Shown here one piece after another: positions 3,211-40,598 of a stretch of 53,030 nucleotides of DNA. The position numbers and the translations under genes were made by a program. This DNA comes from Kiritimatiellia bacterium (GTDB taxonomy: Bacteria > Verrucomicrobiota > Kiritimatiellia > RFP12 > UBA1067): positions 1 through 53,030 of the forward strand of contig JAQUCE010000025.1 in assembly GCA_028686345.1 (NCBI GenBank), read 5' to 3'. Position 1 is the first letter of the stretch; every line of letters begins with the position of its first letter. Under the pieces are notes generated by a model. It ran no database searches and had not been told where the DNA came from. It worked only from the letters and a program-made list of their open reading frames with translations.

Positions 3211-5373
3211 ATGAATAGACCAATCGCAATCACAGGCATGGGGGCAATCACACCTTACGGAAGCGGAGTTGAAACACTCTGGCAGGCACTGCTTGCAAAA
3301 GAGTCCGCCATCTCCGCCATGGATCTCTTTGATCTGGGCGGCATCCTCTGTACCCAAGCCGGTGTGATCCGGAATTTCCGCGCGCCGGAGGGGTTTGAGG
3401 AGCAGCCGCGGGCCACCGCCTTTGCCGCTGCCGCCAGCCTGGAAGCGCTGGCCCAGGCTGGAATCCTAAACAATCCGCAGGCGCTGGCAGAGTGCGCCCT
3501 GATCACAGCCTCCAACTTCGGCAACATTGATTATGGCGAAAAAGCGCTGATCCCCCCCGAACACCCGGATTATGAGCCTGGCATGGCAATCGGCTGCGCC
3601 CATTTCAACACCGCGGATATCATTGCTGACAAGCTGGGGCTGGCTGGCTTCCGCCTCTCGCTCTCCCTCTCCTGCGCCTCAGGTGCCTCGGCGGTCGTCA
3701 CTGCCGCGGGGCTGATCACCGCCGGACGCGTCCAGCGGGTTGTGATTGTCGGCTACGACGCTCTCTCGCGTTTTGCCTGGAGCGGGCTCTGCGCCCTGCG
3801 GACCATGAGCAAAGAGGCGGTACGTCCCTTTGACCTGCACCGCAACGGCACTATTTTCACCGAGGGCGCTGCTGCGATCGTGCTTGAAGCAATGAGAGCC
3901 GATGCTCAGCCGCCGCTCGCTTTTCTGAGCGGCTGGGCCTCTAACAACAACGGGCACCACATGACCGCCCCTGCTCCTCTGGGCGCCGGCTCAGCTGAGG
4001 TAATGGATCAAACTCTGCAACAAGCAGGGTTGGCGGCCAATCAGATTGACCATATCAACACCCACGGCACTGGCACCAAGCCCAACGATGTCACCGAAAC
4101 CCAGGCCATTCAAACCATCTTCGGCACCTGCGCCGCGTCGATTCCCGTCACCTCCATCAAAGGCGCCCTGGGCCACATGCTGGGGGCCGCTGGCGCAGTG
4201 GAGCTGATAGCGGCAGTGCTCTCGCTGCGGGACAACCTGATCCCCCCCACCGCTGGTCTGACCGAACAGGATACGGAGTGCGCGCTGGATGTAGTGACAA
4301 CTCCGCGGAGTGCTGAGCTGCAGCATGTGCTCTCCAACTCCGCCGGTTTCGGGGGTTGCAATTCCGCGCTGGTGGTCAGCCGCACCGCGACACCGTCGCA
4401 GATCCAACAGGCGAACCGAATCTTCATTACCGGCTCCGCCTTGATCACTGCGCTGGGCTGCGATAATGAGGAAACACGGGCGGCACTGGAAGAGAGTGAG
4501 AGCGCCTGCTTTCCGCTGGAGCGCTTTGAGCTGCCGGACGCTGAGGAGCCGCCGCTGGTGGGCGAGCTCTTTGAGCTTGAGATCGCTGATTACGGCGTTG
4601 CCACCAAACCCTACCTGGACCATAGCAGCCGCCTGTTTCTCTGTGCCTGCGGCGCGGCGCTGCGCGAGGCCCGCCACACTGCTGCAACACTCAAGAGTTT
4701 AAACGCCGGCATTATGGCAGGCACGGCCTGGGGCTGCGCCTCAACGCAACAGCTCTTCTTTGCCGACTTTATCAACAAGGGGCCGCGCCTGGTCAAACCA
4801 TTTATCTTTCCGCACGCCTACTCCAACACAGCGGTCAGCCTGGCCTGCATGGAGTGGTCGCTCACCGGCGCCCACGACAACATCACCAACCCTTGCATTG
4901 CCTCAGGCGCAGCACTGGTGGAGGCCTGCGACACCATTCGCGCTGGCCGCTCAAAGTGCATGCTGGCAGTTGGCTGTGACGCACTCTCGCTACCGCGATT
5001 GCTGGCAGAGGGCACCGGAGAGCCGCAAGGCGAAGCCGCTGCGGCACTGGTGGTTGAAGCCTCAGCCGAACACGCACTGGCGGAGATCGCGGGCTGCGGC
5101 CTGGCGCCCGATGCCGGGAGCGCGGTCAGTGCCGCGCTGCATCGCGCTGGTTTAAACGCCGCGGAGCTGACCGCGCTGTACGTAGGCGGCGAGAAGGCAG
5201 CTATCGCTCTGCCGCTGCCGACGTTTCGACTGGAGGATTTATGCGGCGAGCTGGCAGGCGCATCCACGATCGCCTGCGTGGCGGCGGCCCTGATTAAAGG
5301 GTTGAACGGCGCGACACTGATTCTGACAGCCGAGCAGAGCGCAGCTGTCGCTGTTATTATCAAGCCGTGCTGA
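3211..5373 (+). CDS. Fused double ketosynthase (FabF-like KS + chain-length-factor-like half)
   Basis: This 720-residue protein is two beta-ketoacyl-ACP synthase domains in tandem. KS1 (1-400) has the full catalytic set: Cys155 in LSLSCASGAS, His285 in NTHGTGTK and His322 in KGALGHMLGAAG, so it should condense acyl-ACP and malonyl-ACP. KS2 (about 403-720) is shorter. It keeps a Cys at the nucleophile site (Cys562 in TNPCIASGAA), but I find no counterpart of HGTGT, and the GH position reads GE (LCGELAGAS), so it looks non-catalytic, like the KS-beta/chain-length factor of type II systems. No ACP, ketoreductase or dehydratase is adjacent. The start has an upstream GGGAGG. The product could be a fatty acid, aryl-polyene-like or polyketide chain; not determinable here. 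It could work with the other KS locus at 35.9-40.6 kb, but they are far apart. Confidence 0.85.
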   Translation: MNRPIAITGMGAITPYGSGVETLWQALLAKESAISAMDLFDLGGILCTQAGVIRNFRAPEGFEEQPRATAFAAAASLEALAQAGILNNPQALAECALITASNFGNIDYGEKALIPPEHPDYEPGMAIGCAHFNTADIIADKLGLAGFRLSLSLSCASGASAVVTAAGLITAGRVQRVVIVGYDALSRFAWSGLCALRTMSKEAVRPFDLHRNGTIFTEGAAAIVLEAMRADAQPPLAFLSGWASNNNGHHMTAPAPLGAGSAEVMDQTLQQAGLAANQIDHINTHGTGTKPNDVTETQAIQTIFGTCAASIPVTSIKGALGHMLGAAGAVELIAAVLSLRDNLIPPTAGLTEQDTECALDVVTTPRSAELQHVLSNSAGFGGCNSALVVSRTATPSQIQQANRIFITGSALITALGCDNEETRAALEESESACFPLERFELPDAEEPPLVGELFELEIADYGVATKPYLDHSSRLFLCACGAALREARHTAATLKSLNAGIMAGTAWGCASTQQLFFADFINKGPRLVKPFIFPHAYSNTAVSLACMEWSLTGAHDNITNPCIASGAALVEACDTIRAGRSKCMLAVGCDALSLPRLLAEGTGEPQGEAAAALVVEASAEHALAEIAGCGLAPDAGSAVSAALHRAGLNAAELTALYVGGEKAAIALPLPTFRLEDLCGELAGASTIACVAAALIKGLNGATLILTAEQSAAVAVIIKPC

Positions 5374-23547: not shown

Positions 23548-26500
23548 CTACCTGATAACTATGACAGTTCCCTTAGCGGTAATGCGTGCCTTGAGCGCAT
23601 TGTCCTCAACCAAGAGCTCGATCTTCATGCCCGCGCCGTTGATTCCGGCGGCGGCTTCACCCCTCCACGCAGCCAGATTGGCCGCGCCGACCAGCGAGCC
23701 TGAAGGTTCCAGAATGGTGTAGACACCCGGCCTGACTTGCTCGAACACGACTGTTCCTTTATCGCCCAGAGTCAGATCCCCGTTGATTGAGATCACCGCC
23801 TCGCCCGCAGCGGGCAGCTCTGTTACGGTTATCACTGTGCCGCCCACCCCAGCTGCGGCGGTGTAGCTGAGCATAAGATCACCATCAATATACATGCCGC
23901 CGCTGCCGGCACTGATCGCCGAGGCGCTCACCAGTGCTCCGGCGAAGGTTCCTGAGCCGCTCAAGGTCAAAAGACCCTCATCCAGCACCCGGTAACCAGG
24001 CACCGGACGGTCAAACCATTTGGCTGAGAGATAGGCATCATTCTGCTCCTGTTCAATTGGCAGCAGTTGCCGGCGATAGATCAGCACCTCGCCGAGCCGC
24101 TGGGCACCGGAACGGTGTCCATAATCTTTATTCACCCGCTCACTGGCAAAAGCGCCCGCCCAGGTCGGACCGGCGGCCCGCAGTGAGAGCAGATGATAAC
24201 CAGCTGATGGAAAACCGTTGGTCAGACCGGGTGCTGCAAGGATCTCCCCGTTCATGCGGGTTTCGCCATTGAGGATATTGGGGATTCTTCCACGAGTGGC
24301 AAACCTGACCCCTGACCAGAGCGGCGTGCGGTAGTCGGCATAGCCGTAATTGAAGGGCGTTGATGACTGATCGCTGCAGCGGAAATAATCTATGTCGCCG
24401 GTATTCCAATCTCCCAGCATCTGGCCGCCGCCGTTCTGCGCACCGATCACCCAGTGTACGGCCTGCACATCAGTGTAGCGGGTGCTCCAGATCATGCCGC
24501 GTTCATCGGTTTTGCTGGTGCCCAGCGTTCCAAAATCCACCACTGGCAGACCATTAAGCTGACCCCCCATGATCACCGGCATGCGCACCAGTGAGGTGGC
24601 TTTGTTCAGACCGGGGGTGCCATCGCGCACTGTGCGTTTGTCCAGCCACTCCAATTTGCCGGCACCGTTTGTCACGAGCGAGCCACTCTGACTGGCATCC
24701 ACCCAGAAGGCCGGGGCAGCCACCGGGCCTGATGGCGTGACTTTGGTGCGGGTGGTGTCGATATTGATTGAACCGCCCTGGTTTTCAATCGCGCCGGCAA
24801 AGCCGTAGCTCTCATTGAAGCTGATTGAGCCGCCGCCGGCGACTGAGATTGAGCCGATGCCCTCAAGGGCTGGTGAACTCAGTGTCGCGCCGCCCGCCAC
24901 CTCAACTGACGTTCCCTGCAGCGCAAGCGCCGTGTCACTGACCATATCGGTCTTAAGCAGGATAGTTCCGTTGACAAAGGTGACCTTGGCCCCTGTTTCA
25001 ATTTTCACGCCACTGTTCAGGGTCAGCACTGAGTTCCGACCCAGATCAACGGTCGCGTCAACATTGGCGCGCGCCTCAAATACGTTCAGCGTCAGGGCTG
25101 TGTTGTCAGGCAGAGAGAGCCCTTCGCTGAGATATCCACTCTGATTGAAGAGCACAATTTTGTCAACATTCGCCACCGAGCCGGTGACGCTGAGCACCCC
25201 GCCGTAAAGATATATAGCGCTGCCAGGGAGTGAACTCAGATTGGCCACAGTAGTCGTCTGCCCAACAGGAAAGGCCATATTCTTGGCCGCTCCGAAACTG
25301 AGGGTTCCGATCTGCAGAGCCGTCGCATCAGCGGCTCTTAGATAAAAACGACCCTCACCCCCGGTGTTGTTATTTAATCTACCGATATTTGCCGCAGCTC
25401 CCTGCACAAAATTGAGGCTTTTAGTCCTGTTGCCGTTGGCTGTATAGATAGTGATCGGAACGCGACCAGAGCCATTGACAGTGAGTGTTTTATAGTTATG
25501 GTTCACCGATGCAATGCTTGCAAACACATCGCCGGACATGGTGAAATCGGTTTCATCAACCAATAGCGTTCCGGCGCAGATTACTGAGCCGTCACCGCTC
25601 CTGGTCAGCGTACCTCTACCATACACATCCTGTATATTCAGTGCCACGTCCTCGGCCAGCTGGAGCTGCAGAGTCCGGGGTTCCGTCTCCAGATATCCCA
25701 CACCGACATCTAACGCGCCGGAAATTGAAAGCACTCCGGCGGCATTCAAAGTACCGATTGAAATCCGGCCAGACGAAGAGCCGAGCACCGTGCGCTCATA
25801 CGCATAGGCCCGGTCAATTAGAACATCGTCGAAGCCATTGAAAGTAAGAGCATCCTTGGCATAGAGAAAGCTGCTCAGCAAGGCAGCCCCGTTGCCGGTC
25901 ACGGTCAAGCTCTCATCCGCGGCAACAACTATACCGCCGACACTCAGATCCGCTACCGCATGTACGATCACACTGCCGGAGCCGGAGAGCTGGCCAATGT
26001 AGGGCGCAGAGGCCAGCGAGAGATCGGCTGTCACCACACAGCCATTCCTAACCCGCAGCTCGCCAGCGCTAAAAGGCAGAGCGCTCTGCGTAGCATTGCT
26101 CACAGTGTAGCCACTCACACCCACCTCAATCCGCTCAACCTTAGCGATATTGCTGAGGGCGCGTAGTGGATCAACCCCGGGTGCATCCAGGTTGAGAGTG
26201 TTGATCCGAACGCTCCCGCCAACAGCGCTGAGCGTCGCGGAGGCGCCTCCCAGACGCACTGAGGCGAGGGTCACATCTCCCCCGAACCACTTCTTCTGCA
26301 AATAGTTTTCGGTGTCCAGGATCTCCGCATCGCTCAGGGCATTGGTAAAGACCAGCACCTCACCGAGACGCTGACATCCGGAGCGTAAATTATAATCAGA
26401 GAGCCGTTCCGATGCAAAGGCTTTTGCAACGGTATCATCTGCCGTACGCAGTGAGATCACATGATACCCAGGTGTGGGAAAGCCTCGCTGGAAAGAGTCG

Positions 26501-29052
26501 TAGAGTTCACCGTTGACCCGCGTGGTTCCATCGCGAACATCCCGCAGATTATCCCGATTGGCATTGGCGTAACGAGTGCTGAACAGCGCTGTATAAGGGG
26601 TGTTCAGAGGGTAATCGAAGAAATTGCTGATACTAGGCACAAGCTCGCCGCGCAGAAAATCTAGCAGCGACTCATCACCGAGCAGCATGCCGCCGCCCTC
26701 CTGAGCGCCGATCACCCAGAAGACTGTACGGATATTGGTCAACCGCTGATCCCAGACCATGCCCTTATAAGTGGAGGAGGAGGGCGAAGCAAATTTGACC
26801 ACGCTGTTGTTGTTCAGCTCATTGGCGAGAATCACTGGCTGCTCCCCTGTGGCCGTGGCTTGCATGGTGTGAATGCCGCCACTGTAACGCTTGTCGCGCC
26901 ACTGGAGATTACTCCCGGTCACCAGCGACTCCGAAGCTGTGGCGTCGACCCAGAAAGCGGGCTCACCCGATGTCCAGAGAGGCACTGCCGGCGCGGATGG
27001 CGCGCTCAGCACAACACTGCCGTCATTGATATCCAGGTGCACAGAGGAGGCGACATCCGCGACTGCCAGCACACCGCCGTCCAGTCGGAAGGTGCCGTCA
27101 CCGGCGAGTGACCCGACCGTCAGTGTGTTGCCTGCGCCGGGATTAATCGCAAAAACACCACCAACGGCAATCGCACAGCTTTCGATATTGTTGACCAAAG
27201 AGCCGCCGGTCAGCTCAATGCCAGCAGCAGCACCTTCAAACACAGTTAAATCACCAACCGCCAACCCGCCTCCACCCGCGACAGAGAGCGTGCTGCCATA
27301 GAAATTCAGGTTGCTCACACTCAGCAATGTGGCTGGCGTGAGGGTTATATCCCACCATACATTCAGCTCCGATAAAACGCTCAAAGCACTATTCAAGGTT
27401 GTGCCGCTGCTTGCAGTGAGAGTGCCGCCATCCGTATCGAACACAGATTTGTCAATAATATCAAAGCTGCCGCCGCCGGCAACGGAGAGCGTGCCCCCGC
27501 CGCTGAGAGTGTAAATCACAACATGACCGCTGGAGTGAATTGTGGCGGTGACACCAGCGGGAATCTGCAGCTGCTCTAAAACGAGATCAACTCCATCCGC
27601 CACTGTCAGCGTTCCGCCCTGCAGCTCCACAGATGAAATCACCACACTCTCAACCAGCGAGGTCACGGAAACAGCGCCGTCAACCACAAGGTTCAGCTCC
27701 AGGGCTGGATTCACGCCGGTAATTAGCGCTGCCGAGCCGCTGAGCGCAAGCGTCATCTCGCCTGCGTCGGCAAGGTTGTCGAGCAACACTGTGCCGCTGT
27801 CACGGGCCAGAGTGCCGCTGAAGCCGCTCTGATCGCCGCCAAAGGTCAGGGTGCCATCCCCTGCGATGTTCAACCGCGCCGCGCCGCTTAAACCCTGGCG
27901 CATCAGCACGTCATTGGCACCGATGTCCAGCGTTGATTCCGCTGAAACAGCGACACCCACCGAAGCTCCCCGAAAGAGACCGGCGCTATTCGGAGTTAGC
28001 ACCTCCAGCGTGCCGCCGGCAAAATCGAAATTGATTGTTCCAGCGTCGGCATACACATCAGGTGTACGCAGTACGCCGCCATCCTGCAGCAGAATATTGC
28101 CGATACGGAGGCTCTGCGATGACAGAACTCGCTGCGAGGCTGTGACCACTGCGTTGCTGCCGATCTCAATGGTGTTGGTGTTGGGCAGATTATAGTTGGA
28201 GTCTTTCCAGCCCATCCAGATGGTGCCCACATTGACAACCGCCGGTGTACCGTTAGTCCCGTTCACCACCAGCGTGCCAGGCTGCTTGGTACCCACGAAA
28301 ATGCCGCCATCCGCAGCTGCTCCTGTAGCGGCAAATATGCCGCCCAGAATCTCCGCCCGCGCCGACCCCGCACCGGGATCACCCTGGGCTGTATAACCGA
28401 TCAGCAGCACCGCCCCGCCGGAGCCGCTGCAGTTGACAACCCCGGAGTTCATCCGGAAAAGGGCGCCGTCGGCCATCACATCCTGACCCATGCGCACGAT
28501 CTTTGTACTGATAGTGCCGCCGTCGAGCACCAACGCGGCAGTTCCATCCACATATAGATCCTTGTTCGCCGCCGTCAAGATTTCACCTTCGGCTGTAACC
28601 TTGGTAACCCCAGCTTCAAAGGCGGGGGTCGCCCCGCTCAGAAAATCCCAGGGGGCTTCAATGGAAAGTTCGCCAGCTCCCTGTTTGATGATCTTGGAAC
28701 CTCCCTGGCTTGTGACTGGAGCCGCCAGCTCCACTGTGCCGCTATCGACGGTCAGAACTCGCTCCCCATCCAAAACAAGCGCACTCCCAGCAGGGCTGCC
28801 GGATGCAACTCGCCATGCTCCGCTGCCGAAGATCACATCAGCTGCGTTAGTGCGGCTGCCATCCAATGCAACCGTCAGCTTCCCGCTGTGTGTATTGGTA
28901 AAATAAAGGTTGACACTGCCGTTGGGAACAGCCGCGCCATCCCAGTTGGCACCCGTTCCCCAGCTTCCATCCACCCCGCTGATCCAGCTTTGACCATAAG
29001 AGGAAGAAACTGCAACCAGAACGACTGCTGATATTTTGCATAACAACTTCAT
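23548..29052 (-). CDS. Giant secreted beta-strand-repeat protein with duplicated LamG-like domain
   Basis: 1834 residues with a signal peptide (MKLLCKISAVVLVAVSSSYG). The start of the mature protein (GSWGTGANWDGAAVPNG) and the many short strands rich in Gly, Ser, Thr, Val and Leu resemble autotransporter-associated beta-strand repeats, probably forming a long beta-helix. Two homologous inserted domains occur at about 700-925 and 1440-1680, sharing PAFWVDA, a W.DKR motif, HWVIGAQ/FWVIGAQ, GGG..LGD, GYH..SLR and QRLGEVL; they look LamG/concanavalin-like. I find no C-terminal barrel, PEP-CTERM, sortase or T9SS tail; the end is KARITAKGTVIVIR. It is probably a surface or extracellular carbohydrate-binding adhesin. 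Divergent from the XylR-type regulator, whose operator lies 81 bp upstream. Confidence 0.85.
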   Translation of the reverse strand: MKLLCKISAVVLVAVSSSYGQSWISGVDGSWGTGANWDGAAVPNGSVNLYFTNTHSGKLTVALDGSRTNAADVIFGSGAWRVASGSPAGSALVLDGERVLTVDSGTVELAAPVTSQGGSKIIKQGAGELSIEAPWDFLSGATPAFEAGVTKVTAEGEILTAANKDLYVDGTAALVLDGGTISTKIVRMGQDVMADGALFRMNSGVVNCSGSGGAVLLIGYTAQGDPGAGSARAEILGGIFAATGAAADGGIFVGTKQPGTLVVNGTNGTPAVVNVGTIWMGWKDSNYNLPNTNTIEIGSNAVVTASQRVLSSQSLRIGNILLQDGGVLRTPDVYADAGTINFDFAGGTLEVLTPNSAGLFRGASVGVAVSAESTLDIGANDVLMRQGLSGAARLNIAGDGTLTFGGDQSGFSGTLARDSGTVLLDNLADAGEMTLALSGSAALITGVNPALELNLVVDGAVSVTSLVESVVISSVELQGGTLTVADGVDLVLEQLQIPAGVTATIHSSGHVVIYTLSGGGTLSVAGGGSFDIIDKSVFDTDGGTLTASSGTTLNSALSVLSELNVWWDITLTPATLLSVSNLNFYGSTLSVAGGGGLAVGDLTVFEGAAAGIELTGGSLVNNIESCAIAVGGVFAINPGAGNTLTVGSLAGDGTFRLDGGVLAVADVASSVHLDINDGSVVLSAPSAPAVPLWTSGEPAFWVDATASESLVTGSNLQWRDKRYSGGIHTMQATATGEQPVILANELNNNSVVKFASPSSSTYKGMVWDQRLTNIRTVFWVIGAQEGGGMLLGDESLLDFLRGELVPSISNFFDYPLNTPYTALFSTRYANANRDNLRDVRDGTTRVNGELYDSFQRGFPTPGYHVISLRTADDTVAKAFASERLSDYNLRSGCQRLGEVLVFTNALSDAEILDTENYLQKKWFGGDVTLASVRLGGASATLSAVGGSVRINTLNLDAPGVDPLRALSNIAKVERIEVGVSGYTVSNATQSALPFSAGELRVRNGCVVTADLSLASAPYIGQLSGSGSVIVHAVADLSVGGIVVAADESLTVTGNGAALLSSFLYAKDALTFNGFDDVLIDRAYAYERTVLGSSSGRISIGTLNAAGVLSISGALDVGVGYLETEPRTLQLQLAEDVALNIQDVYGRGTLTRSGDGSVICAGTLLVDETDFTMSGDVFASIASVNHNYKTLTVNGSGRVPITIYTANGNRTKSLNFVQGAAANIGRLNNNTGGEGRFYLRAADATALQIGTLSFGAAKNMAFPVGQTTTVANLSSLPGSAIYLYGGVLSVTGSVANVDKIVLFNQSGYLSEGLSLPDNTALTLNVFEARANVDATVDLGRNSVLTLNSGVKIETGAKVTFVNGTILLKTDMVSDTALALQGTSVEVAGGATLSSPALEGIGSISVAGGGSISFNESYGFAGAIENQGGSINIDTTRTKVTPSGPVAAPAFWVDASQSGSLVTNGAGKLEWLDKRTVRDGTPGLNKATSLVRMPVIMGGQLNGLPVVDFGTLGTSKTDERGMIWSTRYTDVQAVHWVIGAQNGGGQMLGDWNTGDIDYFRCSDQSSTPFNYGYADYRTPLWSGVRFATRGRIPNILNGETRMNGEILAAPGLTNGFPSAGYHLLSLRAAGPTWAGAFASERVNKDYGHRSGAQRLGEVLIYRRQLLPIEQEQNDAYLSAKWFDRPVPGYRVLDEGLLTLSGSGTFAGALVSASAISAGSGGMYIDGDLMLSYTAAAGVGGTVITVTELPAAGEAVISINGDLTLGDKGTVVFEQVRPGVYTILEPSGSLVGAANLAAWRGEAAAGINGAGMKIELLVEDNALKARITAKGTVIVIR

Positions 29053-32286: not shown

Positions 32287-33354
32287 ATGAGCAAAAACCA
32301 ATACAACCCAGAAATTCACCACAGGCGGTCGATCCGGCTGAAAGGCCACGACTATGCCGGGGGCGGGGTGTATTTTGTGACAATTTGCACGCATCACCGG
32401 CAGCAGTTGTTTGGGCACATGGCGGGTGGTAAAGTCGAATTGACCGAGGCGGGGCGTGTGGTTCAAAAGTGCTGGCAGGCCATTCCAGAACATTTTCCAG
32501 GTGTTACAGCCAAAGAGTTGGCCGTGATGCCCGACCATGTGCACGGGTTGGTGGAAATGGTAGGGGCGAAAGATTTTTCGCCCGTACATGGGGCGAAAGA
32601 TTTTTCGCCCGTACATGGGGCGAAAGATTTTTCGCCCGTACATGGGGCGAAAGATTTTTCGCCCGTACATGGGGCGAAAGATTTTTCGCCCATACAGCCG
32701 CCCGCACCGGGGCGGCCAAAAGGCACCTCACGCACGCTAGGCTCGGTGGTGCGCGGGCTCAAGGTGGGTGTCACCAAGTGGGTTCGGGAAAACACAGCGG
32801 TGCAGGATGTCTGGCACCGCAATTATTACGAGATGATTGTGTGGGATGCCGAAGAGGAGCATCGGATCGCGAACTATATCCGCATGAATCCGTGGCGCTG
32901 CGTGACGGATTTTGGCAACGGTCTACGCGGCATGGGCAACCCAGCGCTATGGAACACGGATAAACTTGGGGTGCTGTGCAGCCGCAATGCACCGCGCCCA
33001 AAGAGCATTCCCAAGGCAGCCGCGTATTTAAGCGGCTTCCACTCCCCCATGGAGAAGGAGATTCTCCAGAAGCTCCTGGAATACAAGCTGCCCCTAATCT
33101 GGTGCCCGGCCTGGGGGCTGACTGGGACGCTCAGCACCGAGACGACCACAGCTCTCGAAGAGAACCGCATGTTGATTCTGGAGATGACGGCGCACGATGG
33201 CAACCTCGCATCAGCCGAGGCGCGCAACCGCTTTGTGCTGGGAAACGCTGACCAGCTCTGGTTGCCGCACGTGACCCCCGGCGGCATGCTCGATCGGCTG
33301 GTGCGAAACATGCAGGTGCAGGAGAAGTTTTTAACCCGCGGCGAAAAACCCTGA
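32287..33354 (+). CDS. RAYT (Y1/TnpA-REP) transposase with DprA-like C-terminal domain
   Basis: 355 residues. 1-90 and 140-205 form a Y1 (IS200-like) transposase: YFVTICTHHR, the HUH motif His84-Val-His86 in MPDHVHGLVE, GTSRTLGSVVRGLKVGVTKW, and VWHRNYYEMIV with Tyr180/181 as candidate nucleophile, then IANYIRMNPW. RAYTs cut and rejoin single-stranded DNA at REP palindromes. Between the HUH motif and the tyrosine helix, residues 93-136 are five near-identical copies of GAKDFSPVH encoded by tandem REP palindromes. Residues 245-345 resemble a DprA/Smf Rossmann domain (SGFHSPMEKEIL, LPLIWCPAWGL, ARNRFVLGNADQLWLPH), which binds ssDNA in natural transformation. The reading frame is intact throughout, so the protein could be active. 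REP units flank the gene on both sides. Confidence 0.9.
   Translation: MSKNQYNPEIHHRRSIRLKGHDYAGGGVYFVTICTHHRQQLFGHMAGGKVELTEAGRVVQKCWQAIPEHFPGVTAKELAVMPDHVHGLVEMVGAKDFSPVHGAKDFSPVHGAKDFSPVHGAKDFSPVHGAKDFSPIQPPAPGRPKGTSRTLGSVVRGLKVGVTKWVRENTAVQDVWHRNYYEMIVWDAEEEHRIANYIRMNPWRCVTDFGNGLRGMGNPALWNTDKLGVLCSRNAPRPKSIPKAAAYLSGFHSPMEKEILQKLLEYKLPLIWCPAWGLTGTLSTETTTALEENRMLILEMTAHDGNLASAEARNRFVLGNADQLWLPHVTPGGMLDRLVRNMQVQEKFLTRGEKP
32563..32697 (+). repeat. Five tandem 27-bp REP units inside the RAYT gene
   Basis: Copies start at 32563, 32590, 32617, 32644 and 32671. Each contains the 8-bp stem GGGCGAAA/TTTCGCCC with loop GATT plus the spacer GTACAT. The first is preceded by GTA, giving the GTAG foot. 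27 bp is nine codons, so copy number can change without breaking the frame. Confidence 0.95.
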
Positions 33355-33376: not shown

Positions 33377-33505
33377 CTGCCGGGGCGGCTAAAAGGCACG
33401 TATATCCACACATTGTGATTGTCATCTTCAGCATGTTATGTTTCAATCATCAGCAACAGGATCCCCTTACAATGCTAAATGATTTTGCCGAATAGACACA
33501 ACACC

Positions 33506-34719
33506 ATGAAATTTAAAATTACCGACCTCACTGGAAGGAGGGTTTCGAGCGAGACCTTCCTTAATAAAACAATCACTGTTGAATCACGCTCCGGGCTTCA
33601 CACTGCCGAGAAGGCGCTGATCAACAACCTTAGCTCCATCCCACCCGGCGGCAACCTGCTGATTGCGGGCAACCGCACCGGGGTGCTGGCCATGATTGTC
33701 GCCACCCTGCAGCCGGAGCGTCAGATCACCTGCCACACCGGGGACATTCACCATGCCAAGACACTCTGCCGCAACCTGCAGAGCAACCGATTCAACACCC
33801 GGCTGATCTTCGATGATTTTGTGAGGGTGGAAGAGGGTGTCGGGGTGACGGACGACAGCTGTCCGGCTGACGCGGCAGGCGCAGTGATCACCGTGGCCTG
33901 CACCACCCGGATTCCGGAGGGCGGGTTTGACAACGCTCTTTTCATGATTACACCCACCACCACCACCGGCGAGCTCACGCTGGATCTGCTGGAAAACATT
34001 CATCAAAGGCTAAAAATCAAGGGTAAGTGTCTGATCGCCTATGACGGCGAGTCACATGCTTTGACCAAGCAGTTGAAAGAGGCTTTCGGCAAGGTGCAGA
34101 CAATCGAGCAGAGCCGCAAAGGCGGGACTATCTTTCTGGCAACCAAAAAAGGTGAGTTGAAAAAACCGCGCGATTTTCACGCCACCTTCGAAACCTCCCT
34201 GCCGGGCGGCAACAAAATAACCCTGGGGTCACTGCCCGGCATCTTCTGTCACCGCCGCGCCGACAGCGGGGTCTGGCCCTGGCTGAAATTGCGGCAGAGC
34301 GGCTGGAGCCGGGAATGCGTGTGCTGGACATGGGGTGCGGCTGCGGGATTGTCGGCCTGCTGCTGGCGCAGAAACACCCGGAGATTGAAGTGACATTCAT
34401 TGACTCGCACACCCGGGCAATGGATGTCACGCACCAGAACATTCAGTTGCTGGGGGTTGCCAATGCCAAGCTGATCCTCTCTGACACTGGAACTGCGGGT
34501 AAAGACTACGATATGTTTGTGGGCAACCCGCCCTACTACGCGGACTACCGCATTGCCGAGGTCTTTATTGAGCAGGCCTATCACTCACTCAAAGAGGATG
34601 GCGTGGCCCTGTTTGTTACCAAGCAGACCGCTCAGGTCGGCTATCTCATCCATGAAAAATTCGGCAACTCTGATTTGATCAGCCGCCGCGGCTACGGTGT
34701 GATCAGCGCGGTAAGGTAG
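33506..34719 (+). pseudogene. RsmC-like rRNA guanine-N2 methyltransferase, frameshifted
   Basis: Two overlapping frames make one protein of the RsmC/RlmG type (COG2813). The first frame (from ATG 33506, or 33479) gives the N-terminal MTase-like domain and linker up to SLPGIFCHRRADSG. The second, one frame away, continues as GLALAEIAAERLEPG, then the SAM-binding motif VLDMGCGCGIVG and the catalytic VGNPPYYADYRI, ending at 34719. The switch falls at a GGGG run (34268-34271); one extra G would restore RADSGGLALAE. This could be a sequencing or assembly error, a phase-variable run, or a young pseudogene. RsmC methylates 16S rRNA G1207. No good ribosome-binding site is seen for either start. Confidence 0.82.
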
Positions 34720-35031: not shown

Positions 35032-35853
35032 ATGAAAAAGTGGAACACCTCTAAAATCAGAGCCGCTAAAGGTTCGTACAAACTCGCGTGCCTGACAGCT
35101 TATGACTATGCCTTTGCCCGACTAGCTGACAGCGCGGGGGCGCATCTCATTCTAGTGGGCGACTCTCTGGGCATGACGACCCTGGGATATTCCACCACTG
35201 TTCCCGTGACCATGGATGACATGCTGCATCACACCGCCGCCGTTGTACGCGGGACGCGGGAAGCACTGGTGATCGCTGACATGCCTTTCCTCTCCTATCA
35301 GGTTAGCATTGAAGAGGCGCTTCGCAACGCCGGGCGTTTTCTGCAGGAGGCGGGAGCTGACGGGGTCAAGATTGAGGGCGGTGCTATTCGCCGCGGTTGT
35401 GTTGAAGCTCTGACCAACAACGGCATACCAGTGCTGGGTCATATCGGGCTGCTACCGCAATCGATCCACAATCTGGGTGGCTACAAGGTGCAGGGCAAAA
35501 CCCAGGAAACAGCCAACGCCTTACTGGAAGATGCCCGCGGGCTGGCGGCGGCCGGCGCTTTTGCAATTGTTTTAGAGTGTGTGCCGCCGGATATCGCGGC
35601 CCTGGTCACCGCCGCTGTTCCAGTGCCTGTGATTGGGATCGGCTCGGGCTCAGCCTGCGACGGACAGGTGCTGGTTATGAATGACCTGCTCGGCCTATCA
35701 GAGAGTCCTCCCGCCAAATTTGTCAAGCAGTATGCCTGCCTGGCGCCGCAAATCAAAGCAGCCTTTGCCAGTTTTATCGCAGATGTCCAGGCTGGAGAGT
35801 TTCCCGCATCTGAGCATTTCTACGCACCTGCTCAACCCAAGAGCAACTCCTGA
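35032..35853 (+). CDS. panB: 3-methyl-2-oxobutanoate hydroxymethyltransferase (PanB)
   Basis: 273 residues, full length for PanB. It transfers a hydroxymethyl group from 5,10-methylene-THF to alpha-ketoisovalerate, the first committed step to pantothenate and hence CoA. Motifs: LTAYDYAFARLAD, LVGDSLGM (metal-binding Asp), VIADMPFLSYQ, GADGVKIEGG, VLGHIGLLPQS, FAIVLECVP (catalytic Glu) and GIGSGSACDGQVLV. No panC or panD is next to it. The KS-like gene starts 15 bp after its stop, so it probably heads an operon in which the last gene carries a phosphopantetheinyl transferase, which consumes CoA. Its start lacks a strong Shine-Dalgarno. Confidence 0.96.
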   Translation: MKKWNTSKIRAAKGSYKLACLTAYDYAFARLADSAGAHLILVGDSLGMTTLGYSTTVPVTMDDMLHHTAAVVRGTREALVIADMPFLSYQVSIEEALRNAGRFLQEAGADGVKIEGGAIRRGCVEALTNNGIPVLGHIGLLPQSIHNLGGYKVQGKTQETANALLEDARGLAAAGAFAIVLECVPPDIAALVTAAVPVPVIGIGSGSACDGQVLVMNDLLGLSESPPAKFVKQYACLAPQIKAAFASFIADVQAGEFPASEHFYAPAQPKSNS

Positions 35854-35868
35854 CTGATTGGATATTGC

Positions 35869-37287
35869 ATGTTATCGCACCGAATAACCAAGGAAGAGAT
35901 TGTGATCACCGGGATATCCTGTCGATTTGCAGAGTCCCAAGCTCCGTCGGCATTGTGGAAGAACATTCTGCAGCGCAGGACACTCTTCACCCAGATTGAC
36001 CCTGAGGCCGGGAGCGGGAAACACGGGGCAAGCGCCAAATATGTTTTTGACCGCCCCTACCCCAGGTATGGAGCACTGCTCAAAGATCTTTACGCCTGCA
36101 ACCCGGCTGATCAATACTTTCCCCGCAAAATAAACGCTGGCGAGAACCAGGATGTTTTCTTCGCAGTTCAACTGGCCATTGATGCCCTGCGCGACAGCGG
36201 AACCACGATCAGCAGCCTGCCCACTGACCGCGTCTCCCTGCGGCTGGGTTATGCACCGCCCTTTAACTGCGCCTCAGTGAACTGGCTGCAGCACACGGTT
36301 TTGGTTGACCAGACACTGGATATCATCAGCAGCTTTTTCCCAGGCGCTGACCGATCGCAAATTGATGACATCCGTGAAACCCTGGTCAAATCGCTGCCAG
36401 AGCCGGCTGCTTACTCCTTTATCTCCGCGCTGGGCTGCGCCATGACATCCTGGACCGCCCATTTGCTGGGCTTTGCCGGGCCGGCATTCTCGCTGGATGC
36501 CGGAACTGTCTCCGGCTTGCAAGCTGTTCAAGGCGCGATTGATGACCTGCTGTTGCACCGCTCCGACATCGCGCTGGCGGGTGCCATCCAGCCCCCCTTA
36601 AACCGCGCCATGCTGCAGGGGCTTGCCGGAGCAATGACCTTCTCGCGCGCTGAAAACCTACAGCCCTTCAGCCGTGATGCGGATGGGACCCTGCCGGGCG
36701 AAGGGGGCGCGGTTTTCGTGCTTAAGCGTTTGAAAGACGCTGTGCGGCACGGTGACCGTATTTACGCTGTGATCCGCAGCACCGGTATTGCCGCCGCCTC
36801 CATTGATCAGCATCAGCGTGTTCCCACCCCGGAGCGCTTGACACGCGCCATCATGCGCGCCCTGCATGCGGCTGAGCTGACAACCGAATCGATCCAGCTG
36901 ATCGAAGCGCACGGCTCTGGAAACGCGCATGCCGACCGTACAGAGATGAATGTGCTGCAGGATGTGTTCAGCGGGCGCGACCCAAGGCTGCAGCGCATCG
37001 GCATTGGCACAATCAAGAGCAACATCGGGCACACGCTCTGGGCCTCCAGCGCGGCAGGCATATTAAAAGCCGCGCTCGCGCTGCACCACAGGGTGCTGCC
37101 CCCCAACGCCCCGGTTGATAAACCTTATCTCAGCTTTCTCTCAGCGCAGTCGCCTATCTACCTGTTGAAAGAGGTACGCCCCTGGATCAGGGAATCGGAG
37201 AAAAATCCGCGGCGCGCCTGCGTCACAGCCATTGATTTCACAGGAACATGCGCCGCCGCTGTTCTGGAGGAGTACCAGGAGCCCTAA
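35869..37287 (+). CDS. Ketosynthase-like protein lacking the active-site Cys
   Basis: 472 residues with the modular-PKS/PUFA-synthase KS fold: IVITGISCRF, LGCAMTSWTAHLL, FSLDAGTVSGLQAVQGA, PFSRDADGTLPGEGGAVFVL, IEAHGSGNAHADRTE and TIKSNIGHTLWASSAAGILKA. The nucleophile position of the usual DTACSSS motif reads DAGTVSG, so Cys is replaced by Thr213; both histidines remain (His348, His388). Without Cys it cannot condense, but a KS with the His pair alone can decarboxylate malonyl groups, as KSQ or chain-length-factor domains do. The stop TAA shares one base with the ATG of the next gene (TAATG at 37285-37289). It may be the partner of the AT/DH/PPTase protein, an enediyne- or PUFA-type synthase split in two and lacking ACP and KR. 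Confidence 0.88.
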   Translation: MLSHRITKEEIVITGISCRFAESQAPSALWKNILQRRTLFTQIDPEAGSGKHGASAKYVFDRPYPRYGALLKDLYACNPADQYFPRKINAGENQDVFFAVQLAIDALRDSGTTISSLPTDRVSLRLGYAPPFNCASVNWLQHTVLVDQTLDIISSFFPGADRSQIDDIRETLVKSLPEPAAYSFISALGCAMTSWTAHLLGFAGPAFSLDAGTVSGLQAVQGAIDDLLLHRSDIALAGAIQPPLNRAMLQGLAGAMTFSRAENLQPFSRDADGTLPGEGGAVFVLKRLKDAVRHGDRIYAVIRSTGIAAASIDQHQRVPTPERLTRAIMRALHAAELTTESIQLIEAHGSGNAHADRTEMNVLQDVFSGRDPRLQRIGIGTIKSNIGHTLWASSAAGILKAALALHHRVLPPNAPVDKPYLSFLSAQSPIYLLKEVRPWIRESEKNPRRACVTAIDFTGTCAAAVLEEYQEP

Positions 37288-40200
37288 TGAGCGTATTGAA
37301 ACATCTCTATGACACTTTTGACAGCGAACTCTGCTTGATTGGGGCGCGCAACCCCAAAGAGCTTGCCAAAGAGGTCGACCGTTTAATCAACTTTATCGAC
37401 CACGCTTCCGGAGTTCTACTGGAAGACATTGCTTACACTTGCGCACGGTCAGCACGCCGCATGCCAATGATCTTAGCGTTAGTGGCAGTCAACCCCACGG
37501 AGCTGCGCGACAGCCTAATCCTGGCCAGCGCCAAGATCAAGGGAGGGGTAAAGCGGATTAAAGACCGTGGCGGCACCTACTACTTCACCGACCCGATCCG
37601 CCCGCGCGGCCAGCTTGCATTTCTTTTTCCCGGAGTGCTCTCCTTCTACCCTGATATGCTGCGGGATCTGGCAACTGTTTTTGACAGCGTGCGGGATAAT
37701 TTTGATCAACTCGAAGCAGCACTCTACTCACAGACCAACCGGAAACTCTCGCCAGCTGATTTTGTGTTTCCGCCGGCGGCCTGCTACCGGAAGGCCAGCA
37801 AAAATGACAAAGAGCCTGATTTCGCTAAATCACTGGCCGCGGTTCACTGCGCCAACACAGCGCTCTATAATATTTTCAGCCTGGTTGGCATCATACCCGA
37901 CGGTGTGCTGGGATATCAAGGCGGGGATTTCGCGGCCATGGACGCTGCCGGCGTGTTCGGCAACCTCACGCCAGCGAAGAGAGTGCAGTTTATCAGCGAA
38001 AGCTATAAGATGTTCGTCCGGCTCTGTACGCGCAAGGATCTACCCACCTGCACGATGCTTGCAACAGTGGATGCCACCCCTGAAATTCTCGGGCAGCTCA
38101 TGGATAAATTCCCGGGCCGTCTGATCATCTCCGGCTTTCACAGCCCGAAGCAGCACACGCTCACCACAACCCTGGAGGCTGAGAAAGAGATCCTGAAAAT
38201 ACTGAGCAGTGCCGGGGTCAAGGTCATGCCACTCTCCATGGACCGGCCATTCAACACCCCCTGGTGCTCCAAGTCATTGCCAACTATCCAGCAGTTTTTA
38301 GCCCACTGGGTCAAGCGTGCTCCGCGTATTCCGCTTTACTCATGCACCTCCGGCGAGAGGCTGACCGAGATATCGCGCAACACACTGGAGATGGCCGCTG
38401 ATCAGTGGATTGAGCCCATTAACTTTGAAGCAACCATTGAGCGGATGTACGTGGATGGCTACCGGATCTTTGTTGAACTCGGGGCGCGCGGCAACCTGAC
38501 CAATGCGATCAACGAGACCTTACGGGGCAAGCCCCACGTTTCACTGGCCGCGAACCGTATTCACCGCTCAGGCCTGGTCCAACTGCATCACACCTTGGGC
38601 ATGCTGGCAGCCCAGGGCGTGCAACTCGACCTGACCAAACTTCATGCCAACCGGCGCTGCAACGAGCTTAACCTACGCCGACCGCACTCTGTGATCACCA
38701 CCTCGCCCAACACCTTGCGGCTCACATCAGAGCTGCCGCTGATCACTGCCTTCTCCCTCTCGGACAGCTTTCTGCCATCGCAGGACAAAAAAGAGAGCGA
38801 GCAAATCAGCCGCACCCTCCCCAAAATCAGCAGTCGCTACCGGCTTGATTTCGGCGCTGATTTCCCCATGCTCGCCAACGCTGAGATTAAAGAGGAGCGG
38901 CCGGGCGAATTACTGGAGCTCTCCAAGGTGGTCAGCATCACGGATTATCCGTTTTTGAAAGATTACTCATTGGGCACAACCCACATCTCCTTCTCAAAGC
39001 CCGCTCTGACCGGGCTGACGATCTTGTCGCTGTGCACCGGGCTGGAGATGATGGCCGAGGCTGCCCGCAAACTAGTTCCGCGCCGTCGCGTGGCCCAGAT
39101 TGTCAGTGTGCGCTCACAACGGTGGCTCGGGTTTGAGCGCGGGGCGATCAGCATCAATATCCGCGCTGAGAACATCAACTGGCGCGACTCCAGCTTTCAG
39201 GCAGTCAAGGTGGAGCTGCGGGACAATGCGCCTGACAGTGAATTCACCGACCCTGTGATTGAAGCCATCATCCTGTTGAGCACAGCGGGGTTCATTGCCC
39301 AGAGCGCGCAGGCCGAGCCGTTGATCACCCCCCATCCGGTCAACTGGTTTGGCCACGAGATCTACCCGAACCGCCTCTTCCACGGCTCAGAGCTGCGCGC
39401 CATCCGGCATGTGGACCTGTGGAGCGAAGGCGGCATCAACTTTGAGATTCAGGTGCCGGGCCGGTCACGGGCAGTCAAACACACCCGCATGCCGCTCTTT
39501 TCGATTTGGCCGGCCCTGCTCGACGCAGTTGTCTCCAGCATCCCGCTCTGGCGCTCGCACGGCAACTTTCCTGACTCGATCTCCATTCCTTTCAGGTGTC
39601 GCAGCATTATCTTTTATGCGGCCAGCTTCACTGAAGGCAGCCGTCTCAACGGCTATATGCGCATCACGGCCACGACCCCGCGCTCACAGATTGCGGACAT
39701 CAAGGTCTCTGACGGCAACGGCAACATGCTGATTCATATTCGAGGGTGGGAGGAGCTGAGTGAGCCGGTGCCGGATATCTACCATAAGTTTGTGCTGAAC
39801 CCCTCGGAGACCTTCATCACCGGCACCCTGCCCATGGAGCTGCTGGGCAACCCAACCACGCCGGTTGCAACTGCGGTCACCAAAGATATTCCTTTTAAAA
39901 TGTTCGAATCCAACCAGGAGCTGTGGCTCAAAACCCTCGCATTCACCAGCCTCTCGGAGAAAGAGCGGATCGAGTGGCTCGAGATGCAGGGTGCGACCAG
40001 CCGCCGGGTTGAATGGCTTTTCGGAAGAATCGCGGCCAAGGAGGCCCTGCGACGCTACCTCATAAATTTTCAACAGGCGCGCTGGACCTGCGCTGATATT
40101 GACATCTGGCCGGACGACTCTGGCAAGCCCCATCCGCTAGGCACCTGGCGTCAGCACTCGGCCACACACCTGGATCTCTCGATTGCCCACACCTCCAAGC

Positions 40201-40598
40201 TGATTGTGGCAGCCGTGGCCGCCAATGCCCGTCTGGGGATTGACATTGAGATGGTCACCCGCGATCTCTCCGAAGAGTTCACCAAAGGGGTTTTCACCCC
40301 TGCCGAACTTGAGCTGGCAGCCCATGCGGGCGAGGGCCCGGTGGCGATCCTGCGCTTCTGGTGCGCCAAAGAGGCCATCTCCAAGGCCCTGGGGGTTGGC
40401 ATCCGCTACTCGCCCAAAGACCTGCAGGTGCTGCATATCGACCCAGTCAACGGCGAGATCCAGCTCCAGATGACTGGGCAGTGGCTGGATGAGTTTAAAC
40501 CCATGAAGGGGCGCAAAACAACCATCACCACCTCGATCTTCGCCGGCCACGTCTTTGCAGCCTGTATGCTGCCCAACTCCATCTTCGACAAAGAGTAG
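37287..40598 (+). CDS. AT-like / DH-like / phosphopantetheinyl-transferase fusion
   Basis: 1103 residues from ATG 37287 (GGAG-rich leader; overlaps upstream stop by one base). Domains in order: an acyltransferase-like domain (about 105-450; LAFLFPGVLSFYPDMLRDLA, FHSP at 284-287), whose GHSxG nucleophile elbow reads GYQGG, so Gln211 replaces Ser; a double-hotdog dehydratase-like domain (about 540-830), where the catalytic His of the DHxxG motif is Tyr560 (YPFLKDYSLG) although Asp746 is kept in WPALLDA; and a Sfp-type PPTase (about 880-1090) with GRIAAKEA, DSGKP, LSIAHTS, LGIDIE (Asp986, Glu988) and FWCAKEAISKALG (Glu1029, Lys1033), all intact. AT, DH and the separate KS thus look inactive while the PPTase should work. 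The order resembles enediyne PKSE and PUFA synthases without ACP and KR. Confidence 0.88.
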   Translation: MSVLKHLYDTFDSELCLIGARNPKELAKEVDRLINFIDHASGVLLEDIAYTCARSARRMPMILALVAVNPTELRDSLILASAKIKGGVKRIKDRGGTYYFTDPIRPRGQLAFLFPGVLSFYPDMLRDLATVFDSVRDNFDQLEAALYSQTNRKLSPADFVFPPAACYRKASKNDKEPDFAKSLAAVHCANTALYNIFSLVGIIPDGVLGYQGGDFAAMDAAGVFGNLTPAKRVQFISESYKMFVRLCTRKDLPTCTMLATVDATPEILGQLMDKFPGRLIISGFHSPKQHTLTTTLEAEKEILKILSSAGVKVMPLSMDRPFNTPWCSKSLPTIQQFLAHWVKRAPRIPLYSCTSGERLTEISRNTLEMAADQWIEPINFEATIERMYVDGYRIFVELGARGNLTNAINETLRGKPHVSLAANRIHRSGLVQLHHTLGMLAAQGVQLDLTKLHANRRCNELNLRRPHSVITTSPNTLRLTSELPLITAFSLSDSFLPSQDKKESEQISRTLPKISSRYRLDFGADFPMLANAEIKEERPGELLELSKVVSITDYPFLKDYSLGTTHISFSKPALTGLTILSLCTGLEMMAEAARKLVPRRRVAQIVSVRSQRWLGFERGAISINIRAENINWRDSSFQAVKVELRDNAPDSEFTDPVIEAIILLSTAGFIAQSAQAEPLITPHPVNWFGHEIYPNRLFHGSELRAIRHVDLWSEGGINFEIQVPGRSRAVKHTRMPLFSIWPALLDAVVSSIPLWRSHGNFPDSISIPFRCRSIIFYAASFTEGSRLNGYMRITATTPRSQIADIKVSDGNGNMLIHIRGWEELSEPVPDIYHKFVLNPSETFITGTLPMELLGNPTTPVATAVTKDIPFKMFESNQELWLKTLAFTSLSEKERIEWLEMQGATSRRVEWLFGRIAAKEALRRYLINFQQARWTCADIDIWPDDSGKPHPLGTWRQHSATHLDLSIAHTSKLIVAAVAANARLGIDIEMVTRDLSEEFTKGVFTPAELELAAHAGEGPVAILRFWCAKEAISKALGVGIRYSPKDLQVLHIDPVNGEIQLQMTGQWLDEFKPMKGRKTTITTSIFAGHVFAACMLPNSIFDKE

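What the first reader, a model, noticed from the sequence alone, without database searches (positions are those of the whole stretch)
35032..40598. panB followed by a polyketide-synthase-like pair whose KS, AT and DH look inactive but whose PPTase looks intact
Seen directly: panB, 15 bp, a KS-like gene, one-base overlap, then an AT-DH-PPTase fusion. Nucleophile positions are changed in all three polyketide domains: KS Cys to Thr213 (DAGTVSG), AT Ser to Gln211 (GYQGG), DH His to Tyr560 (KDYSLG). The Sfp-type PPTase keeps GIDIE and FWCAKEAISK. Known: enediyne PKSE and PUFA synthases share a KS-AT-(ACP-KR)-DH-PPTase order; PanB feeds CoA, the PPTase substrate. Inference: a scaffold derived from an iterative PKS that now serves ACP activation or lipid assembly, with panB supplying CoA; or a decarboxylating KS with partners elsewhere, perhaps the double KS at 3211. 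Frames are intact over 4.7 kb, so it is not simply decaying.
Basis: partly seen in the sequence, partly recalled or inferred. Interest (0 to 1): 0.85.

Follow-up and report, generated by a model that had tools for sequence, protein, structure and literature searches.

The report
Dead lipid synthase carrying sole PPTase
Two neighbouring genes encode what is likely the leftover half of a lipid-building enzyme: its three catalytic sites have lost key residues, but its last domain, the only enzyme of its kind found in the genome, keeps them and is predicted to switch on the carrier protein on which ordinary fatty-acid synthesis depends.

Summary
The anatomy is as described. Alignment with intact relatives from other orders of the class confirms KS Cys to Thr213, AT Ser to Gln211 (plus AT His to Asn323) and DH His to Tyr560. 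The pair occurs across one order of Kiritimatiellia. Over all loci examined, KS Cys survives in 5 of 101, AT His in 10 of 115, DH His in 0 of 116, while nine PPTase residues are kept in 113 of 113. Six outgroup loci keep every site examined in KS, AT and DH; in one, the pair lies 6 kb from an NMO-KS-AT-ACP-KR megasynthase, which the window's genome lacks. The fused PPTase is the only one over cut-off here and in 113 of the order's 116 PPTase-bearing genomes outside family f4; f4 lacks the fusion and has one other PPTase. The genome keeps a plsX-fabD-fabG-acpP operon. Best reading: the second subunit of a PUFA-type lipid synthase took over as holo-ACP synthase while its own catalysis died. In relatives the dead domains, including the separate KS gene, are under purifying selection, so they probably serve as scaffold or ACP dock. 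panB adjacency is restricted to some lineages. Some relatives keep a complete KS triad or AT dyad. No activity was tested.

The parts
35032..35853 (+). panB (ketopantoate hydroxymethyltransferase), lineage-restricted neighbour
   Evidence: PF02548 358.5 bits, TIGR00222 above cut-off; directly upstream of the KS in 20 of 51 KS loci
35869..37287 (+). pseudo-ketosynthase gene, 472 aa, Cys replaced by Thr213
   Evidence: PF00109/PF02801; best NCBIfam match PfaA, far below its cut-off; model pLDDT 90.7
36505..36507 (+). KS Thr213 in the Cys column
37287..40598 (+). pseudo-AT, pseudo-DH and intact PPTase in one 1103-aa protein
   Evidence: model pLDDT 85.6, pTM 0.54
37335..38666 (+). KS-AT linker and AT domain, Ser replaced by Gln211 and His by Asn323
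   Evidence: borders approximate
38853..39836 (+). DH domain, His replaced by Tyr560, Asp746 kept
   Evidence: PS-DH; borders approximate
39849..40595 (+). Sfp-like PPTase domain with R914, K918, H968, D986, E988, W1025, K1028, E1029, K1033
   Evidence: PF01648; profile matches AcpS, Sfp, human PPTase and fungal FAS PPTase chains; residues kept in 113 of 113 loci

Best explanation
This gene pair, likely the remnant second subunit of a PUFA-type secondary-lipid synthase, has lost the KS and AT nucleophiles and the DH histidine but keeps an intact PPTase motif set that is the only one found in the genome, so it is predicted to be the cell's holo-ACP synthase, loading phosphopantetheine from CoA onto the ACP of ordinary type II fatty-acid synthesis. 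Shown: residue states; sole PPTase at the Pfam cut-off; no NMO-KS-AT-ACP-KR megasynthase found in this genome; a plsX-fabD-fabG-acpP operon; low dN/dS of the dead domains in close pairs of relatives. Inferred: an ancestor of the order had both this synthase and a free-standing PPTase; the synthase-borne PPTase took over, the free-standing one and the megasynthase were lost, and KS, AT and DH decayed stepwise. Inferred and weaker: the dead KS, AT and DH, whose active relatives all handle ACP (recalled knowledge), persist as a scaffold that docks or presents apo-ACP to the PPTase; where panB is adjacent, it would couple CoA supply to use.
For: Sole PPTase: own genome; of 116 non-f4 genomes of the order with any PF01648 match, 113 have exactly one. 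The matched gene is the fusion in all 116: 67 fetched and checked, 49 by overlap with the fusion search, one of these (G056) only as a contig-end piece. The search is sensitive: 283 of 288 genomes of the phylum sample, 10 of 14 control genomes. f4, without KS or fusion matches beyond the PPTase part, has one PPTase in 15 of 19 sampled genomes. FAS operon. Intact outgroups with a megasynthase; no megasynthase in own genome. PPTase residues 113 of 113 while KS, AT and DH residues drift. NG86 dN/dS in nine close pairs of relatives: KS 0.03-0.19, AT 0.05-0.14, DH 0.02-0.27, PPTase 0-0.22. Families recovered on the tree, consistent with vertical descent.
Against: No activity is shown. The window's genome is a 90% complete draft. 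G014, G037 and G042 have extra PPTases. Decay is incomplete: AT Ser in 30 of 113, second KS His in 93 of 102, DH Asp in 41 of 114 loci; G046 and G056 keep a complete KS Cys-His-His, and five f2/f5 loci keep the AT Ser-His dyad. Eight of 59 newly fetched loci lack an adjacent KS; no KS at E<=1e-40 in G011, G024 and G030 (72-84% complete). The window's own dN/dS was saturated, and the nine pairs are not all independent. The megasynthase search was answered for the own genome only. The deep split of the PPTase tree is weak, with long branches. Nothing direct supports ACP docking by the dead domains.
Confidence: 0.7

Rival explanations
1. PPTase with baggage: the fused PPTase is the holo-ACP synthase, and the dead KS, AT and DH have no role beyond keeping it folded or attached.
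For: Sole PPTase; active-site decay; the KS is unlinked in some genomes.
Against: The KS is a separate gene, found in 51 of 54 non-f4 relatives, also where it lies on another contig (G009, G010, G034); dead domains are nearly as constrained as the PPTase in close pairs; no shortened PPTase was recognised among the fusion loci fetched, though several are cut by contig ends.
Confidence: 0.17
2. The pair is still part of a lipid synthase: a non-catalytic chain-length or docking subunit working with KS partners encoded elsewhere, such as the double KS at 3211.
For: Other KS genes exist in the genome; in pfaB of DHA producers a KS without Cys is part of a working synthase (PMC3098273, passages; PMC12895367, passages); some relatives keep a KS triad or an AT dyad.
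Against: No ACP-bearing megasynthase in the own genome; DH His lost in 116 of 116; no further recurrent neighbour besides panB in most loci. Co-occurrence with the double KS was not tested.
Confidence: 0.09
3. The domains have new chemistry with relocated residues.
For: Both KS histidines remain in the window; DH Asp746 remains; dN/dS in relatives is low.
Against: The KS nucleophile column holds 12 residues, the first KS His is kept in 28 of 102 loci, AT His is Asn in 101 of 115: no single new active site fits.
Confidence: 0.04

Closest known systems
PUFA / secondary-lipid synthases, pfaA-E (PMC3098273, passages)
   Same: KS, AT, DH and PPTase domains; in Pseudoalteromonas DS-12 the PPTase is built into pfaC; outgroup loci carry an NMO-KS-AT-ACP-KR megasynthase
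   Different: Here no ACP or KR domain in the pair and no megasynthase in the genome; catalytic residues lost
PfaB with its pseudo-KS (PMC12895367, passages)
   Same: A KS fold without its catalytic residues, proposed by its authors as structural scaffold that may help position ACP
   Different: PfaB's AT is active and no PPTase is described there; here the AT is also damaged and the partner is a PPTase
Sole Sfp-type PPTase of cyanobacteria such as Synechocystis (PMC5605751, passages)
   Same: One PPTase of W/KEA type serving fatty-acid synthesis in place of AcpS
   Different: Those are free-standing; here it is fused to dead synthase domains
Fungal type I FAS with integrated PPTase (PDB matches; statement in PMC5605751)
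   Same: PPTase domain at the C-terminal end of a synthase chain
   Different: Fungal FAS is active and modifies its own ACP; here there is no ACP in the chain
Enediyne PKSE (recalled; the finding's comparison)
   Same: KS-AT ... DH-PPTase order
   Different: No ACP and no KR between AT and DH; the KS is a separate gene; sites lost

Membership tests
Sfp-type PPTase | ACPS domain over Pfam cut-off with GIDIE-like and W/KEA motifs, about twice AcpS length | tested here: met
   58.7 bits against 25; GIDIE and WCAKEA; 249-residue domain; Sfp 1qr0 matched at 1.1e-6
Sfp-type PPTase | Transfers phosphopantetheine to ACP | not testable with these tools
   needs an assay
PPTase of secondary-lipid synthases | P1a x(G/D)xP and P1b or P1b' motifs as defined in PMC3098273 | tested here: met
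   SGKP and LSIAH read in the sequence against definitions; the P0 motif was not seen by eye
PUFA / secondary-lipid synthase | At least one KS, ACP and KR in the cluster | tested here: not met
   no ACP or KR in the pair; no megasynthase in the genome
PUFA / secondary-lipid synthase | Active KS, AT and DH residues | tested here: not met
PUFA / secondary-lipid synthase (as ancestor) | Homologous loci with intact sites and megasynthase | tested here: met
Enediyne PKSE | KS-AT-ACP-KR-DH-PPTase in one active chain | tested here: not met
Holo-ACP synthase of primary metabolism | Sole PPTase in a genome with a type II FAS operon | tested here: met
Holo-ACP synthase of primary metabolism | Essential for growth | not tested
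   experiment needed

The most novel reading that the evidence does not exclude
Nearly a whole bacterial order has replaced its housekeeping holo-ACP synthase with the tail of a dead PUFA-type lipid-synthase subunit, and the dead KS, AT and DH were kept as a dedicated carrier-protein docking platform that gates or speeds phosphopantetheinylation: a megasynthase turned into an essential protein-modifying machine.
Probability: 0.5. Interest if true: 0.87.

Novelty: new variant of a known kind. Interest (0 to 1): 0.76.

Why it matters
PPTases are essential where fatty-acid synthesis depends on ACP, and are usually small and free-standing (recalled knowledge). Here the only one found sits on, or next to, about 1,300 residues of dead synthase that close relatives conserve. 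The class offers a graded series, from intact outgroups through partly decayed families to pairs with all three sites damaged, in which to watch a synthase lose catalysis while keeping its fold. It makes testable whether KS, AT and DH folds have a value as ACP-binding modules apart from chemistry, and how a cell changes its holo-ACP synthase.

Tried and rejected
Decarboxylating KS: no Gln in the Cys column of 101 loci. panB as a defining partner: of 51 KS loci, 20 have it directly upstream (one cut by a contig end), 27 have at least 1 kb upstream and no panB, 4 have too little upstream sequence; 55 of 60 relatives have panB somewhere. Simple decay: frames are open and dN/dS is low in nine close pairs; the three pairs with the window's genus were saturated, and YN00 gave no value for many comparisons. 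Hidden second PPTase in the own genome: the one weak match (14.7 bits) lies in what reads by eye as a PilT-like ATPase. The weak match in G032 (22 bits) lies on the minus strand of a stretch where a long ORF runs on the plus strand (read by eye); those in G013 and G002 were fetched and not analysed. Recurrent neighbours: in 52 loci only the KS and panB recur in more than 7 loci (overlap filter, so counts are minimal). Papers: this arrangement did not appear in the searches (listings and abstract starts, several lists cut by rank; passages only of PMC3098273, PMC5605751 and PMC12895367; subscription journals are mostly missing). The structure of the KS-fusion-ACP complex was not predicted.
Full report
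What is there. panB (35032-35853), a 472-residue KS-like gene (35869-37287) and a 1103-residue AT-DH-PPTase gene (37287-40598) run head to tail with a 15-bp gap and a one-base overlap. The break lies between the KS and the KS-AT linker, whose Pfam models match, below cut-off, at residues 17-77 of the second protein. The best NCBIfam match of the KS is PfaA of PUFA synthases, far below its cut-off. AlphaFold models are good within domains (KS pLDDT 90.7; fusion 85.6 but pTM 0.54). Foldseek puts the KS on PKS ketosynthases, a KSQ-AT structure first by a narrow margin, and the fusion on multidomain PKS chains and AT structures.

Are the sites lost? Yes. Aligned with homologues from other orders of the class, the window has Thr213 where 5 of 5 outgroup KS have Cys, Gln211 where 6 of 6 outgroup AT have Ser, Asn323 where 6 of 6 have His, and Tyr560 where 4 of 4 outgroup DH have His. 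Across the order (loci, the window, and the 67 loci; rows with a gap in a column left out of that column): KS Cys 5 of 101, first KS His 28 of 102, second KS His 93 of 102, AT Ser 30 of 113, AT His 10 of 115, DH His 0 of 116, DH Asp 41 of 114. PPTase R914, K918, H968, D986, E988, W1025, K1028, E1029 and K1033: 113 of 113 each. Replacements vary widely. On a tree of 56 rows the fewest changes are 1 for DH His, 1 for AT His, 5 for KS Cys and 7 for AT Ser, so decay came in steps. It is not complete everywhere: G046 and G056 keep a KS Cys-His-His, and five loci of families f2 and f5 keep the AT Ser-His dyad.

Is it decaying? The sites are, the genes are not. In nine close pairs of relatives, three of them sharing genomes, NG86 dN/dS is 0.03-0.19 for KS, 0.05-0.14 for AT, 0.02-0.27 for DH and 0-0.22 for the PPTase; the comparisons with the window itself were saturated. 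KS and fusion are adjacent in 41 of 42 loci that hold both in the first set (the exception, L075, has its fusion in two frames). In the second set, of 59 loci with enough upstream sequence, 51 have the KS directly upstream and 8 do not; 8 further loci are too short to tell. In G009, G010 and G034 the KS lies on another contig but is present.

Where does it come from? The nearest named records (L158, L159; contig lengths equal to those of G002 and G001) are titled Kiritimatiellae bacterium (class). Other titles in that list read Verrucomicrobia, Lentisphaerae or, twice, Akkermansia muciniphila, as their depositors wrote. Among the 60 nearest genomes (own included), 52 of 54 outside family f4 match the fusion and 51 of 54 the KS; the six f4 genomes have no KS match at E<=1e-40, and four of them match the fusion only at the PPTase level. 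In a class sample of 193 genomes (capped list, three candidates scored per genome), G223 and G304 have AT-DH-PPTase fusions; G095 and G339 have a KS next to an AT-DH protein without recognised PPTase; G186 and G345 have a KS-AT protein. G223, G186 and G345 also carry ORFs of 2535-2725 residues of NMO-KS-AT-ACP-KR type, two of them with DH. This resembles a PUFA-type secondary-lipid synthase, so the window's pair is read as its surviving second subunit. In the window's genome the megasynthase of G223 as query finds only the pseudo-KS, the pseudo-AT, the FabD-like AT of the FAS operon, a KS in a 431-residue frame and the double KS at 3211.

What does the PPTase do? It is the only PF01648 match over cut-off in the genome. 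In 144 genomes of the order 131 have a match; the 13 without are 56-85% complete. Of 116 outside f4 with a match, 113 have exactly one, 108 on a frame of at least 850 residues. All 67 loci then fetched are the fusion; the other 49 overlap the fusion matches, G056 only as a contig-end piece. G014, G037 and G042 have extra PPTases; G014 and G042 also have further large AT-bearing ORFs. Family f4 has one PPTase in 15 of 19 sampled genomes, on frames of 275-394 residues in 13 and of 606 and 787 in two. The search finds a PPTase in 283 of 288 genomes of a phylum sample. In the PPTase tree the fused domains group with those of G223 and G304 and with the PPTase encoded near the synthase of G186, apart from most free-standing ones (two free-standing ones fall on their side); the deep split is weak (72/52) and several branches are long. 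The genome has a plsX-fabD-fabG-acpP operon and three more small carrier-protein genes over cut-off. Some PPTase must activate that AcpP; this is the only candidate found.

How it most likely works. The fusion would use CoA to turn apo-AcpP into holo-AcpP (inferred from family and sole status). The dead KS, AT and DH, whose working relatives all handle ACP (recalled), most likely remain as an ACP-docking scaffold, the KS as a separate partner (inferred from constraint alone). Where panB is adjacent, pantothenate supply and use would be linked; this holds for 20 of 51 KS loci, while panB exists in 55 of 60 relatives.

Relation to known systems. Single Sfp-type PPTases serving fatty-acid synthesis are known in cyanobacteria (PMC5605751, passages), PPTases built into synthase chains in a PUFA cluster (PMC3098273, passages) and fungal FAS (PDB matches), and a pseudo-KS taken as scaffold in PfaB (PMC12895367, passages). 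The combination found here did not appear in the searches. It works like a holo-ACP synthase (predicted); it descends from, but by the tested features no longer is, a secondary-lipid synthase.

Noticed in passing
window 3211-5370: FabF-like double KS in one protein; the second half reads NPCIASGAA where the first has SCASGAS, so it may be a chain-length-factor-like half (by eye).
   Followed up: no
window 32287-33354: Transposase-like ORF with an in-frame run of repeats of GAKDFSPVH (by eye).
   Followed up: no
window 33479-34719: A methyltransferase-like protein appears split over two overlapping frames (by eye).
   Followed up: no
window 23548-29052 (minus): 1834-residue ORF without a Pfam match.
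   Followed up: partly
L286 (G014:C15:20000-30000): A genome of the same family has a 2527-residue AT-bearing ORF and its own additional PPTase beside the dead pair.
   Followed up: partly
L256 and L257 (G095, G339): Outgroup AT-DH proteins of similar length keep the synthase residues, but Pfam finds no PPTase and PPTase residues are partly changed or missing: the reverse decay.
   Followed up: partly
L348, L319, L334, L338, L330, L291, L293, L332: Eight fusion loci without a KS gene directly upstream.
   Followed up: partly
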